Positions 7,587-49,381 of a DNA stretch of 64,000 nt are shown here, piece by piece (position 1 is the first letter of the stretch; the number at the start of each line of letters is the position of its first letter). The translations under genes were made by a program, and so were the position numbers. Origin of the DNA: Saccharopolyspora galaxeae (GTDB lineage Bacteria; Actinomycetota; Actinomycetes; Mycobacteriales; Pseudonocardiaceae); NCBI RefSeq assembly GCF_016526145.1, contig NZ_JADDUE010000003.1, positions 434,001 through 498,000 of the forward strand, written 5' to 3'. Below the pieces are notes generated by a model. It did not search any database and was not told the DNA's origin. It saw only the letters and a program-made list of their open reading frames with translations.

Positions 7587-7638
7587 GAGTGAACGGACCG
7601 CTCGCCCGATCTATTGGGACCAACGGTCCGTTCGCTCA
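7587..7638. repeat. Intergenic nested palindrome, copy 1 (GAACGG-N-CCGTTC family)
   Basis: A ~50-bp inverted repeat: the left arm gagtgaacggaccg and right arm cggtccgttcgctc flank the core gatctattggga. Each arm is itself an odd palindrome (GAACGG, one base, CCGTTC, here with one mismatch in the left arm). It sits just past the GH16 stop at a convergent junction with whiA. It may act as a bidirectional terminator. Core orientation ATCTA. Confidence 0.85.
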
Positions 7639-7720
7639 GAACGTTCAGCCCGGATCGGATGATGCCCGGGCATGTCGCCGAAGTGCTCGGACGAGCCCCC
7701 CGCGACGCGAGTTCGCCGGA

Positions 7721-7770
7721 AGTGAACGGACCGTTCGCCCAATCTATTGGGACCAACGGTCCGTTCGCTC
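7721..7770. repeat. Intergenic nested palindrome, copy 2
   Basis: A near-perfect member of the family: arm agtgaacggaccgttcg, core cccaatctattggga, arm ccaacggtccgttcgctc. It lies 134 bp after copy 1 in the same orientation, with related sequence (cccggat...gcatgtcg) between them. This suggests tandem duplication of a larger unit. A degenerate partial copy with gttcggccggaa repeats follows at about 7770-7815. Confidence 0.9.
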
Positions 7771-7824
7771 AGAGCAGTTCGGCCGGAACAGTTCGGCCGG
7801 AACCGTTCGCTCGGGAAAATCGAG

Positions 7825-8811
7825 TCAGACTTCGGCTTCGAGCATTTCCTGCGTGACGGCGGACTCGGTGTCCGGCAGGCCGAGTTCGCGGGCGCGCTTG
7901 TCGGCCATCGCCAGCAGCCTGCGGATCCGCCCGGCCACCGCGTCCTTGGTCATCGGCGGGTCCGCGAGCTGGCCCAGCTCCTCCAGCGATGCCTGCCGGT
8001 GCGCCAGCCGCAGCCTGCCCGCCACCAGCAGGTGATCCGGGGCGGTCGGCCCGAGCACGTCCAGCGCCCGCTGCACCCGCGCGGCCGCGGCCACCGCGGC
8101 GCGCGCCGAGCGGCGCAGGTTCGCGTCGTCGAAGTTCGCCAGCCGGTTCGCGGTGGCCCGCACCTCGCGGCGCATCCGCCGCTCCTCCCAGGACAGCACG
8201 CTGGAGTGCGCGCCGAGCTTGGTCAGCAGCGCGCCGATCGCGTCGCCGTCGCGGACCACCACCCGGTCCGCGCCGCGCACCTCGCGGGACTTGGCCTGCA
8301 CCCCGAGCCGCCGCGCCGCGCCGACCAGCGCCAGCGCCGCCTCCGGGCCGGGGCAGGTGACCTCCATCGAGGACGACCGGCCCGGCTCGGTCAGCGAACC
8401 GTGCGCCAGGAAGGCACCGCGCCACGCCGATTCCGAATCGCACGCACCGCCGGAGACCACGTGCGCGGGAAGTCCCCGCACCGGCCTGCCCCGCGGGTCC
8501 AGCAATCCGGTCTGGCGCGCGAGGCTCTCGCCGTCCTTGACCACCCGCACCACGTAGCGGGTGCCCTTGCGCAGCCCGCCGGAGGTGATCATGTGCACGT
8601 CGGAGTGGTGCCCGAACAGCTCGTGGATCTCCTTGCGCAACCTGCGCGCCGTGGACCCGCTGTCCAGTTCGGCCTCCACCACCACGCGGCCGGCGACGAT
8701 GTGCAATCCGCCGGCGAAGCGCAGCAGCGAGGAGACCTCGGATCTGCGGCAGCACGTCTTGCTCACCGGCAACCGGCTCAACTCGTCCTTGACCGCCGCG
8801 GTCATCGCCAC
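7825..8811 (-). CDS. whiA: Sporulation/cell-division regulator WhiA
   Basis: WhiA is a DNA-binding regulator that, with WhiB, switches on sporulation septation genes in streptomycetes; it is conserved in Gram-positive bacteria. The 328-residue protein has the N-terminal homing-endonuclease-like (LAGLIDADG-derived) domain, seen in F-A-G-G-L-H and [10 protein letters not shown], and the C-terminal helix-turn-helix ([19 protein letters not shown]). GTG 8811 is chosen because GGAGG lies eight bases upstream; ATG 8805 is the alternative and overlaps the yvcK stop as ATGA. It is the last gene of uvrC-rapZ-yvcK-whiA. Confidence 0.96.
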
Positions 8812-9965
8812 CGGTCAGTCCTCCTCTCCAACGCGGCCGCCAGGCTCGCCGCGAGCGCTTCCGGGTCGTGCCTGCCCGGCTCGCCGGGCGAGGCGACCTT
8901 GTCGAGCAGAGTTTGCGCACCCAGCCCCGCCGCCGCAGCGCGAAGCCGATCAGGTGTGGGCACCGAACCGGCGTCGGCCAGCACTGCGTCCACGGTGATC
9001 CGGGGCGCGTGTTGCGAGAGTACGTCCAGGTGCTGTTCGGGTGAGAACCCCGCGGTCTCGCCAGGTTGGGGGACGAGGTTGAGCAGCACGACGCGACGCG
9101 CCGAGGTGTGCACCAACGCGTCGTGCAATTCCGGCACCAGCACGTGCGGCAGCACGCTGGTGAACCACGAACCCGGACCGAGCAGCACCACATCGGCGTC
9201 GTGCACCGCCTGCACCGCGGCCGGGCAGGCCGTCGGGGTGCGCCAGTCGCCGTTGGTGGCGGCCAGCCGGACCTTGCGGACCCGGCCGGGAGTGCTGGCG
9301 ATCGCCACCTGGCCGCGGATGGTGCGCACCGCCGCCGGATCCGCGTCGAGGCCGACGACCTCGGCCTCCATGTCCAGCGGCTCGGTCGACATCGGCAGCA
9401 CCCGGCCGCGCGCACCGATCAGCCGGGAGGCGTGCTCGAGCACCTGCACCGGGTCGCCGAGCACGTCCAGCAGCCCCGCCAGCAGCAGGTTGCCCACCGC
9501 GTGCCCGGCCAGCGCGCCGTTGCCGCCGAAGCGGTGCTGGAACACCTCCGACCACAGCCGCCCGCCCTCGTCCGGCGCGGCCAGCGCCGCGAGGGCTTTG
9601 CGCAGGTCACCGGGTGGCAACATGCCGAGTTCGCGGCGCAGCCTGCCGGAGGAGCCGCCGTCGTCGGCGACGGTGACCACGGCGGTCACGTCGGCGGTGA
9701 GGCGGCTCAGCGCGCCGAGCGTGGCCTGCAGGCCGTGGCCGCCGCCGAGCGCGACCGCGCGCAGCGGCCGGTCGGCGGCCGGGTCGTGCGGGGCCGGGTC
9801 GTGCGGTGCCGGGTCGTGCGGGGCCGGGTCGCGCGGGGCCGAGCCGTCCGGCGCCGAGCCGTCCGGCGCTGGGGTCTCGGGTGTTGGGCCCTCCGGCGCT
9901 GCGTTCTCCGACGCCTGCCCGTCCGGTGTTCGCTCGTCCGAGGTGCGGGGTGGCCGTCCCGTCAC
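8802..9965 (-). CDS. yvcK: YvcK/CofD-like gluconeogenesis and cell-shape factor
   Basis: YvcK-family proteins bind UDP-sugars and are needed for growth on gluconeogenic carbon and for cell-wall metabolism in Bacillus and mycobacteria (CuvA). The conserved domain starts near residue 67 with [10 protein letters not shown], followed by [12 protein letters not shown] and P-P-G-D-L-R. Before it is a ~65-residue acidic, proline-rich tail containing four near-identical five-residue units of the A-P-H-D-P type, encoded by a 15-bp DNA repeat. The GTG start overlaps the rapZ stop (GTGA); the tail would be lost if translation started internally. The whiA start overlaps the 3' end. Confidence 0.92.
9781..9840. 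repeat. Four 15-bp tandem repeats inside yvcK
   Basis: The unit gggtcgtgcggggcc is repeated four times with one or two changes (9781, 9796, 9811, 9826). Each copy encodes one five-residue unit of the N-terminal tail of YvcK. A length-variable tail could arise by slippage. Confidence 0.9.
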
Positions 9966-48083: not shown

Positions 48084-48960
48084 GGTTTCCTCCTACCACA
48101 TGCTGCTGATACCACCGGTCGGCGGTGTGTTTGACGGCCTCGGCCGACTCATCCGGCCCTAGCGCAATCTTGCGCAATTGGCGCAAAACTTCCGCCGCAT
48201 CAGCAACGATATTGGCCTCTTCGACATATGACGAGGATCCGATGTTCTCGCACAGCACGAGGTCGGCGTGCTCAGCGAACTCCAGACGGGAGAACGGCCC
48301 GTCCAGACCAGCGTGCGCACCGACACCGAGTTCCAGGACTTGCAGGTTGACGTTCGGCCGAGCCGCGACCGCAGCGACTCGCCTGAGCTGGTGATACATC
48401 ACCTCGGCATCGCCGACCGGGCGTTCCAGCACCGTCCTCTCGATCAAGAACTCGAATTGCCGCGAACTCAGCAGCAGCGTCTGCCGTTCAACCCGCTGCT
48501 CCACCAGCGCGTCCAGATCGGCACCCGGCTGAAGAGCGGACATCGCCTCCGCCAAAGCTGCCGCATAATCCGGAGTTTGCAGCAAGCCCGGCACGAACAT
48601 CGTCTCGTAGCTGCTCAACGAGATGGCCTCGCGCTCGAAGGTTTTGATCGTGTCCCAGGCGCTCGCAAGCGACTCCACATCGCCCGGACGGACGCTCCAC
48701 CAGTTGCGGTCGCCGCCGTGCCGCACCAGATCCAGGACTTCCGCCCGCTCGCCGGTGGGCACGCGGTAAAGTCCCAACATCGCGGCCACGTCATCGGCGT
48801 TGAGCCCGCGGTGACCGGACTCCATCCGGCTGATCTTGCTCATCGAGAGCCCGAGCGCCTGCGAAACTTCCTGGGCGCTGAGCCCGCTGCGCTCCCGCAG
48901 CTGCCGGATTCTGCTGGCGACGCGGCGAGTCCGGACCGGAATCGCGTTGCTCTCACCCAT
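48070..48960 (-). CDS. Scr1/WhiJ-type XRE regulator (HTH plus DUF5753)
   Basis: A 296-residue regulator. The N-terminal helix-turn-helix (~12-70) reads I-R-Q-L-R-E-R-S-G-L-S-A-Q-E-V-S-Q-A-L-G-L-S-M-S-K-I-S-R-M-E-S-G. The remainder is DUF5753, with E-R-E-A-I-S-L-S-S-Y-E-T-M-F-V-P-G-L-L-Q-T-P and R-V-E-R-Q-T-L-L. It forms a two-gene module with the overlapping DUF397 gene; such modules influence development and antibiotic production in Streptomyces. ATG 48960; the 149-bp spacer to the divergent 68-residue gene probably holds its operator. Confidence 0.93.
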   Translation of the reverse strand: MGESNAIPVRTRRVASRIRQLRERSGLSAQEVSQALGLSMSKISRMESGHRGLNADDVAAMLGLYRVPTGERAEVLDLVRHGGDRNWWSVRPGDVESLASAWDTIKTFEREAISLSSYETMFVPGLLQTPDYAAALAEAMSALQPGADLDALVEQRVERQTLLLSSRQFEFLIERTVLERPVGDAEVMYHQLRRVAAVAARPNVNLQVLELGVGAHAGLDGPFSRLEFAEHADLVLCENIGSSSYVEEANIVADAAEVLRQLRKIALGPDESAEAVKHTADRWYQQHVVGGNLAAE

Positions 48961-49109
48961 GCTGCCCCCTTTCCTCGATCTCCGGGGACAGCTTCACGAG
49001 TTCCCAGCTTGGCAAGCTAGGGAGATCACTCGAAAGGAGCGTTGCGTGCCGCCGCGGGAACTCCGGAAAGTGCGGCACACCAACGAAAACCGGCTTTCGG
49101 GAGGCACAA

Positions 49110-49316
49110 GTGGCAACCTGGCAGACCCCCGCCGACGATCCGGCCGCGGCGATCACGATCGAACTCCACCCGCGCAGAATCACCCTCACCCAGGGCGAAA
49201 CCGAACTGGTCGTCACCCAGAACCAGCTCTCGGACATCGCCGACAAGCTCTACTTCCTGGACCTGACCTTCCAGAACGACGCCGAAACCATCGTCGACGT
49301 CCTCTGCTCCCCCTGA
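49110..49316 (+). CDS. Small hypothetical protein next to the Scr1 module (68 residues)
   Basis: GTG 49110 is preceded by gggagg five bases away. The product has a predicted beta-hairpin (A-I-T-I-E-L-H-P-R-R-I-T-L, then E-L-V-V-T) and an amphipathic helix (Q-L-S-D-I-A-D-K-L-Y-F-L-D), and ends in D-V-L-C-S-P. It is acidic and soluble. I do not recognise a family. Its divergence from the Scr1 regulator suggests that it is a third part or a target of that module. A palindromic repeat follows 14 bp after the stop. Confidence 0.65.
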   Translation: MATWQTPADDPAAAITIELHPRRITLTQGETELVVTQNQLSDIADKLYFLDLTFQNDAETIVDVLCSP

Positions 49317-49330
49317 CCCCACCCGAACAC

Positions 49331-49381
49331 GAGCGAACGGACCGTTCGTCCCAATAGATTGGGCGAACGGTCCGTTCACTC
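49331..49381. repeat. Intergenic nested palindrome, copy 8
   Basis: Arm gagcgaacggaccgttcg, core tcccaatagattggg, arm cgaacggtccgttcactc: the most symmetric copy. Core orientation ATAGA. It lies between the 68-residue gene and pyrF, which converge, and has no long tail. Confidence 0.92.

What the first reader, a model, noticed from the sequence alone, without database searches (positions are those of the whole stretch)
7587..49381. Family of nested intergenic palindromes, at least eight copies
The same ~50-bp element occurs at 7587, 7721, 23485, 23558, 36029, 38786, 38906 and 49331. Each arm is an odd palindrome (GAACGG, one base, CCGTTC) and the two arms are inverted copies, giving a palindrome of palindromes. 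The core ATCTA/ATAGA sets an orientation: copies at 7.6, 7.7, 38.8 and 38.9 kb point one way, the rest the other. All lie between genes; four of five sites are convergent gene ends. Sequence conservation well beyond that needed for a hairpin suggests recognition by a protein or spread as an element, not simple termination.
Basis: partly seen in the sequence, partly recalled or inferred. Interest (0 to 1): 0.75.

Follow-up and report, generated by a model that had tools for sequence, protein, structure and literature searches.

The report
Repeated palindromes marking gene ends
Bacteria of a Saccharopolyspora group carry more than a hundred near-identical 51-letter palindromes, sitting mostly just after genes and often between two genes that run into each other, where they probably act as two-way stop or end signals that something in the cell recognises by sequence.

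Summary
In detail: eight copies, all intergenic, four of five sites at convergent gene ends. The element is a 51-bp inverted repeat, GAGYGAACGGMCYGYTSGNCC-loop-mirror. A loose pattern finds 114-252 copies in each of 6 genomes of the window's genus, and fewer, variant copies in 23 of 291 other sampled family genomes. Copies hug stop codons (84 of 131 distances within 40 nt) and favour convergent gaps in both species examined; divergent gaps are avoided in G060 but not in G001. There is no U-tract, no target duplication, and no RAYT-type transposase in G001-G004. Convergent junctions not matching the family are rich in other hairpins. Sequence more than pairing is conserved: arms show no overall covariation, and between two strains conserved positions differ at 0.10% against 0.90% in flanks. 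Between those strains no site differs, but three tandem arrays do; G001 has arrays of up to six. Best reading: a RAYT-less, REPIN-shaped repeat family used as two-way gene-end punctuation and read by an unidentified factor. Transcript ends and recognition are inferred, not shown.

The parts
7587..7637 (-). 51-bp nested palindrome, copy 1 of a tandem pair (ATCTA orientation), convergent gap 7574-7824 (gene on the right looks like whiA; name recalled, no call)
7720..7770 (-). 51-bp nested palindrome, copy 2 of the pair; left arm an exact 13-bp palindrome
23485..23535 (+). 51-bp nested palindrome (ATAGA orientation), codirectional gap 23407-23628
23558..23608 (+). 51-bp nested palindrome, second copy, 20 nt from the stop of the gene at 23629-24231
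36030..36080 (+). 51-bp nested palindrome, convergent gap 35909-36191 (gene on the right looks like priA; name recalled, no call)
38786..38836 (-). 51-bp nested palindrome, copy 1 of a pair, 16 nt after the stop of the gene at 38308-38769, convergent gap
38906..38956 (-). 51-bp nested palindrome, copy 2 of the pair, 120 bp downstream, 48 nt before the stop of the gene at 39005-39868
49331..49381 (+). 51-bp nested palindrome with two exact 13-bp arms in a 79-bp convergent gap (14 nt to each stop)

Best explanation
It is a repeat family of 51-bp nested palindromes that serves as a two-way 3'-end (terminator-type) signal for the flanking genes. Because the unit is nearly symmetrical, one copy can serve two converging genes; of 15 convergent gaps with two copies in G060, 10 have both outer margins within 52 nt of a stop. 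RNA of either strand is predicted to fold into a stable stem-loop with no U-tract, so release or 3'-end formation would need help (Rho, exonuclease trimming to the hairpin, or a bound protein). Shown by sequence: copies, positions, near symmetry, absence of a U-tract, position-specific constraint, tandem expansion, slow turnover of sites. Inferred: that transcripts end there, and that an unidentified factor reads the conserved bases of each arm. Copies multiply locally by tandem duplication of the palindrome plus spacer (12-83 bp in the close pairs listed for G060); they appear at new junctions rarely, by an unknown route that does not need a RAYT.
For: Position: of 128 copies in 1.22 Mb of the same-species genome G060, 56 lie in convergent, 63 in codirectional and 5 in divergent gaps and 4 are genic by my gene calls; occupied gaps are 41 of 190 convergent, 49 of 709 codirectional, 4 of 187 divergent (convergent vs codirectional OR 3.7, p 3.6e-8). 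G001 repeats the convergent preference, 20 of 61 against 17 of 227 codirectional (OR 6.0, p 2e-6). In 41 of 49 occupied codirectional gaps the copies are nearer the upstream stop, in 8 nearer the next start. 84 of 131 stop-side distances are 40 nt or less, median 25; at 8 gene ends the stop codon falls inside GAGTGA by my gene calls; 20 of 41 occupied convergent gaps have at most 40 nt left on both sides. Orientation ignores gene direction, 35 opposite, 27 same, 1 unclear. Junctions not matching the family: 34 of 74 convergent gaps of 40-150 nt in G060 have a stem of 12 or more against 3 in one shuffle of each; 35 of 209 (13 shuffled) codirectional, 7 of 59 (3 shuffled) divergent. Seven convergent junctions in other species that match window sites 1, 3 and 4 hold other hairpins, z -2.7 to -6.8. 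Constraint: conserved stem positions differ at 2 of 1920 sites between strains, intergenic flanks at 77 of 8515 (p 2.9e-5), variable stem positions at 7 of 768, loop at 4 of 576. No overall arm covariation.
Against: No RNA 3'-end data were available. No U-tract: 1.52 T in the 10 nt after the hairpin, the background value. Safe space for a selfish repeat would also be enriched between convergent stops. In G001 divergent gaps are not avoided: 6 of 55, against 17 of 227 codirectional. Arm pairing in G060 is slightly worse than with shuffled arms, odd for a stem selected for stability. Of the seven replacing hairpins, three (site 1 in G001, G002, G003) share inner-stem letters with the family and one (site 3 in G004) shares its outer letters, so only three are clearly unrelated (by eye). 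At codirectional site 2 the four other species show no evident counterpart.
Confidence: 0.47

Rival explanations
1. A REPIN/BIME-like repeat whose main role is on DNA: a sequence-specific protein (nucleoid protein or topoisomerase) binds the two 13-bp palindromes, centres 30 bp apart, at gene ends to absorb torsion or block colliding polymerases. The RNA hairpin is incidental.
For: Sequence rather than pairing is constrained. The 30-bp centre spacing recurs in other genera with other loops and partly other arms (the search pattern fixed that spacing, so it could not show others), and 30-bp-period polymers occur in G001, G017, G270 and G307. Convergent preference and tandem arrays.
Against: Hairpins that do not match the family take the same kind of place, which a sequence-specific DNA site would not predict. 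No binding protein identified. 30 bp is not an exact three turns.
Confidence: 0.27
2. A selfish, non-autonomous mobile repeat (REPIN or MITE type) that accumulates where insertion is harmless, between gene ends, with no cellular role.
For: REPIN-like architecture. Site sets differ between lineages: of 112 comparable junctions 2 carry it in both, 5 only in G060, 5 only in the others. Species-typical loops and arm subfamilies.
Against: Purifying selection on specific positions between strains. No Y1 transposase in G001-G004 (G060 was not searched); the one in G000 sits beside a TnpB-like reading frame without arms nearby. No target duplication. No site gained or lost between two strains. Tight spacing to stop codons.
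Confidence: 0.18
3. Ordinary Rho-independent terminators that look alike only because strong GC-rich hairpins converge on similar sequence.
For: Stable predicted hairpins on both strands (RNA medians -27 to -38 kcal/mol) at terminator-like distances. Some other hairpins share part of the letters (site 1 in G001-G003).
Against: Sequence identity far beyond hairpin needs, species-typical loops, 6 of 6 genus genomes with over 100 copies. No U-tract. Little compensatory change.
Confidence: 0.08

Closest known systems
REPINs (REP doublets thought to be moved by RAYT transposases; PMC3116915, passages read)
   Same: Two inverted units, each itself palindromic, making one long hairpin; extragenic; many copies; tandem clusters with repeated flanks.
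   Different: No Y1/RAYT gene found in G001-G004 although they carry 114-252 copies; few arms outside pairs (44 matches in 1.22 Mb, 32 of them at the 3-mismatch limit and several parts of decayed copies, reversed control 14, against 313 inside copies); no recent new site seen; strong tie to stop codons.
BIMEs of enterobacteria (gyrase-binding REP arrays; recalled, no call)
   Same: Palindromic arrays at 3' ends and between convergent genes.
   Different: Here mostly same-orientation tandem arrays of whole 51-bp units; gyrase binding unknown.
TRIT hairpins of Mycobacterium tuberculosis (sequence-conserved terminator family of the RNIE study; recalled only; searches did not list that study and one search found it not held)
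   Same: Conserved-sequence hairpin family after genes in an actinobacterium.
   Different: Could not be compared; no Rfam family matches the window at E up to 1.
U-poor intrinsic terminators of Streptomyces (PMC12207403, passages read)
   Same: Long stable hairpins downstream of genes with few U residues.
   Different: The paper reports covariation in the hairpin consensus; here one sequence is repeated and does not covary overall.

Membership tests
REPIN | Two inverted, individually palindromic repeats forming a long hairpin | tested here: met
   arms around GAACGGWCCGTTC in inverse orientation, 51 bp.
REPIN | Cognate RAYT (Y1 transposase) in the genome, with the repeat beside it | tested here: not met
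   no PF01797 match in G001-G004, one in G000; that one lies beside a TnpB-like frame and no arm of the three patterns tried is in its 3.3-kb locus. G060 was not searched.
REPIN | Dispersal to new sites or excision seen between close relatives | tested here: not met
   43 of 97 G060 clusters compared with G000, and 43 of 45 G000 clusters back (one more resolved by hand, one lies at the edge of its stretch): no site gained or lost, three tandem-unit differences, one decayed copy in each strain. One pair of strains only.
Intrinsic terminator | Stable hairpin shortly after the stop codon | tested here: met
   (prediction only).
Intrinsic terminator | U-tract after the hairpin | tested here: not met
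   1.52 T per 10 nt in 175 exits, intergenic background 0.157 per base.
Intrinsic terminator | RNA 3' ends at the site | not testable with these tools
   No transcript data.
MITE | Terminal inverted repeats with target-site duplication | tested here: not met
   Inverted repeats yes; no flank duplication of 2-9 bp above shuffles in 67 single copies.
BIME-2 | DNA gyrase binding | not testable with these tools
   Needs ChIP or a binding assay.
Any Rfam RNA family | Match to a curated covariance model | tested here: not met
   no match at E up to 1 in the window.

The most novel reading that the evidence does not exclude
A lineage-specific gene-end punctuation system: one sequence, repeated over a hundred times, recognised by a dedicated factor that reads alternate bases of two 13-bp palindromes and stops or insulates transcription from both sides without a U-tract. 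The same 30-bp-spaced architecture, with different letters, would then be in use in several Pseudonocardiaceae genera, as if signal and reader co-evolve.
Probability: 0.3. Interest if true: 0.78.

Novelty: new variant of a known kind. Interest (0 to 1): 0.56.

Why it matters
How GC-rich actinobacteria end transcripts with few U residues is unsettled (Streptomyces, PMC12207403, passages read). A repeated, sequence-constrained, near-symmetrical gene-end element gives over a hundred natural replicates in one genome, plus natural junctions where a different hairpin stands in its place, so a hairpin acting alone can be told apart from one read by a sequence-specific factor. It is also a REPIN-shaped family persisting where no RAYT was found, which bears on whether such repeats are only parasites.

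Tried and rejected
Replication polarity: the strand labels of the first G001 listing were unreliable because that pattern does not fix orientation in G001. Scored by the loop, the copies are 36 forward and 36 reverse, but a positional trend remains: 31 forward and 18 reverse in the first half of the contig, 5 and 18 in the second (p 0.002; by cluster 21/14 and 2/13, p 0.004). In G060 there is none (p 0.41 by copy, 0.24 by cluster). Halves were taken from contig coordinates; the origin was not located. Left as unexplained.

DNA-uptake or operator model: rejected because arms outside pairs are few (44 matches at 3 mismatches or fewer in 1.22 Mb, 2 of them exact at the fixed positions; reversed control 14; 313 inside copies) and because copies prefer stop-side positions. 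In G001 divergent gaps are not avoided.

RNA-structure model with compensatory change: not supported overall (in G060 all 1000 shuffles pair at least as well, in G001 618, G002 969, G003 343, G004 785). Exceptions exist: pair 6-44 in G060 (OR 41, p 6e-5) and pair 10-40 in G001 (OR 5.7, p 6e-4) do covary, while pairs 10-40 and 12-38 in G060 are anti-correlated. Arm variants as a whole are anti-correlated in G060 (OR 0.17, p 5e-6) and go together in G001 (OR 6.1, p 6e-5), perhaps from subfamily descent.

MITE with target duplication: none found. Y1 transposase mobiliser: none in G001-G004. Rfam: no match.

Literature: searches listed nothing that by title and abstract start describes this element; the library holds open-licence papers only, so this is weak evidence of novelty.

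Caveats: gene calls come from a small gene finder I wrote, not from curated annotation; gene names are recalled from the protein starts. The G060 stretches were chosen around 100 positions typed from a listing that did not show all of its 117 matches, plus the window's own region and two control stretches, so class comparisons hold within those stretches. The conserved-position class was chosen on across-copy variation and then tested on strain differences; 64 of 128 copies aligned without gaps and were used. In 'not matching' means more than 8 mismatches to the family at fixed spacing; relatedness was not otherwise tested, and the control is one plain shuffle per gap.

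Full report
What is there. The window holds eight copies of a 51-bp inverted repeat at five intergenic sites. Its form is GAGYG-AACGGMCYGYT-SGNCC, a loop of 9 (AATAGATT-like here), then the mirror image, ending CRCTC. Each arm is centred on a 13-bp odd palindrome, GAACGGWCCGTTC, exact in 6 of 16 arms here. The two palindrome centres lie 30 bp apart. Pairing between the sides does not extend beyond the 51 bp in G060.

How common. The own genome has 108 matches to a loop-specific pattern, reversed control 0. 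With the loop left free, the six genomes of the genus have 114 to 252 matches each. With the loop-specific pattern, 5 of 60 genomes matched (own included), all of one genus. With the loop free, 29 of 297 sampled genomes of the family matched, in 11 of 46 genera: the 6 of this genus and 23 others, 16 of them with 1-6 matches and 7 with 11-44 (five genomes of g26, one of g6, one of g5). Those outside copies have other loops and partly other arms. Of 26 copies in the 20 stretches I read from five such genomes, 11 lay in convergent, 8 in codirectional and 6 in divergent gaps (three of these one polymer) and 1 was genic. A scan of the named genome collection found 19 stretches, all of Saccharopolyspora sp. 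NFXS83 (Pseudonocardiaceae), though that tool may leave out records near the window's own; its contig lengths identify it as G002.

Where it sits. In G060, a complete genome of the same species, I read 1.22 Mb in 50 blocks chosen around listed copies, the window's own region and two control stretches. There were 128 copies with at most 6 mismatches; the reversed control had none below 9. By my gene searches were in convergent, 63 in codirectional and 5 in divergent gaps, and 4 were genic. Convergent gaps were occupied more often than codirectional (41 of 190 against 49 of 709, OR 3.7, p 3.6e-8) and divergent ones less (4 of 187, OR 0.29, p 0.014). In G001 the convergent preference holds (20 of 61 against 17 of 227, OR 6.0, p 2e-6), but divergent gaps are not avoided (6 of 55, p 0.41). 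In 41 of 49 codirectional gaps of G060 the copies are nearer the stop of the upstream gene. Of 131 stop-side distances 84 are 40 nt or less, median 25, and at 8 gene ends the TGA of GAGTGA is itself the predicted stop codon. Element orientation ignores gene direction (27 same, 35 opposite, 1 unclear), as expected of a symmetrical signal.

What else sits at such places. Convergent junctions not matching the family are rich in other hairpins: in G060 34 of 74 gaps of 40-150 nt have stems of 12 or more (3 when shuffled), in G001 6 of 9 (0) and in G003 6 of 10 (0). Codirectional gaps are weaker (35 of 209 against 13 in G060, 11 of 48 against 5 in G001, 8 of 40 against 3 in G003), divergent ones weaker still (7 of 59 against 3, 2 of 12 against 1, 0 of 6 against 0). 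A separate folding test agrees: 60-nt windows after stops in gaps without a copy have z below -2 in 25% of 300, before starts in 5% of 300, in convergent gaps in 34% of 176. At window sites 1 to 4, wherever another species has the same gene junction, it lacks the family; site 5 has no comparable junction. Of 13 such gaps displayed I tested seven, at convergent sites 1, 3 and 4, and they fold with z from -2.7 to -6.8. By eye three are unrelated in sequence (site 1 in G004, site 4 in G001 and G002, the last two being one hairpin with letters changed on both sides), three share the inner stem GGACCGTTCGCCC or a close form of it with the family but are shorter (site 1 in G001, G002, G003), and one keeps the outer GAGTG...CACTC (site 3 in G004). 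The four codirectional site-2 gaps show no clear counterpart, and the two long site-3 gaps in G001 and G002 were folded but not tested against shuffles. So the family seems to be one way, among others, of filling a gene-end hairpin position, and some of the others may be its relatives.

Sequence more than pairing is held. Across G060 copies positions 7-9, 17, 19 and 20 are nearly invariant and 11 almost so, while 3, 10, 12, 14, 16 and 18 vary, often breaking the pair with the other arm. Shuffling arms between copies gives no worse pairing in any species beyond chance; in G060 all 1000 shuffles pair at least as well. Two single pairs do covary, so structure is not wholly free. Between strains G000 and G060, 64 copies compared, conserved stem positions differ at 2 of 1920 (0.10%), variable stem positions at 7 of 768 (0.91%), loop at 4 of 576 (0.69%), intergenic flank at 77 of 8515 (0.90%) and coding flank at 59 of 8085 (0.73%). 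The drift of the loop argues against recent re-copying as the cause. This is what recognition by a factor would give; I could not identify one.

How it changes. Between the strains (99.0% identity), 43 of 97 G060 clusters could be compared: none is gained or lost, three differ by a tandem unit (108, 108 and 85 bp), seven by 1-31 bp, and one copy in G000 falls below the search cut-off. Seen from G000, 43 of 45 clusters could be placed with the same result and one copy decayed in G060; one further cluster is shared on inspection and one lies at the edge of its stretch. In G001 copies form arrays of up to six in a gap, mostly in one orientation (59 of 68 close pairs in the 680-920 kb region), about 100 bp apart, with spacers that are partly copies of each other. 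Among G001-G004 (86-92% identity) 12 of 14 occupied junctions with a comparable junction carry copies in more than one species, with different numbers, for example 6, 4, 3 and 4. Between that group and the window's species (about 83-84%), of 112 comparable junctions 2 carry it in both, 5 only in G060 and 5 only in the others. So units expand and shrink in place, while sites turn over slowly.

Not a standard REPIN. The architecture is that of a REPIN (PMC3116915, passages read), but the Y1 transposase family that should include RAYTs was not found in G001-G004, while the same search rings in E. coli; the single hit in G000 lies beside a TnpB-like reading frame, as in IS200/IS605 elements (naming from recall). 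No target-site duplication is detectable in 67 single copies.

Not a canonical terminator either. RNA of either strand is predicted to fold with medians of -27 to -38 kcal/mol, but the ten bases after the hairpin have 1.52 T, the background value. Streptomyces terminators are also poor in U (PMC12207403, passages read).

Reading. I take it as a bidirectional gene-end signal built from a repeat family, with constraint that points to a sequence-reading partner. The positional and replacement evidence supports the gene-end role; recognition is an inference from constraint; transcription ending there has not been shown.

Noticed in passing
L132 (G001 5892327-5892440), L204 1559-1630, L199 1457-1528, L215 1530-1631: Polymers with exact 30-bp period in which neighbouring units share one palindromic arm; read here in G001, G307 and G017 and listed for G270, suggesting that the 30-bp spacing of the palindromes is itself preserved or that slippage favours it.
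   Followed up: partly
G001 contig C1 (positions): Loop-scored copies are biased by contig half: 31 forward and 18 reverse in the first half, 5 and 18 in the second (p 0.002; by cluster p 0.004); no such bias in G060. Origin not located.
   Followed up: partly
G060 1225077 and 2932410, and a decayed case near 1289163: Copies whose loop is lengthened and contains GCTCCTAYGTTGNGCAAAT; three pattern finds in 1.22 Mb, none in the window or the G001-G004 stretches searched.
   Followed up: partly
G060 2924578, 1111999, 1900422, 201313, 1129376: A rarer palindrome class with similar GAGTGA/GAGCGA outer letters but other, often AAGG-type, inner arms; possibly a diverged branch or an older generation.
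   Followed up: no
L038 about 13874-13943, reverse strand (G004, junction of window site 3): The junction holds a different hairpin that keeps the outer GAGTG...CACTC of the family while the inner arms differ.
   Followed up: partly
L113-L124 (G001 680001-920000): A 240-kb stretch with 97 copies, far denser than the rest of that genome; the parts of it read in G002-G004 are also rich (23 in 101 kb, 42 in 160 kb, 22 in 80 kb). No reason found.
   Followed up: no
L136 (G000 C30 near 59796): Lone Y1 transposase beside a TnpB-like reading frame, not found in G001-G004, with no arm of the element in its 3.3-kb locus.
   Followed up: yes
G060, 8 gene ends (for example at copies 1105111, 2374950, 2393637, 3040989): By my gene calls the palindrome supplies the stop codon of the neighbouring gene (TGA inside GAGTGAAC), so an arriving copy could reset the end of a protein.
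   Followed up: partly
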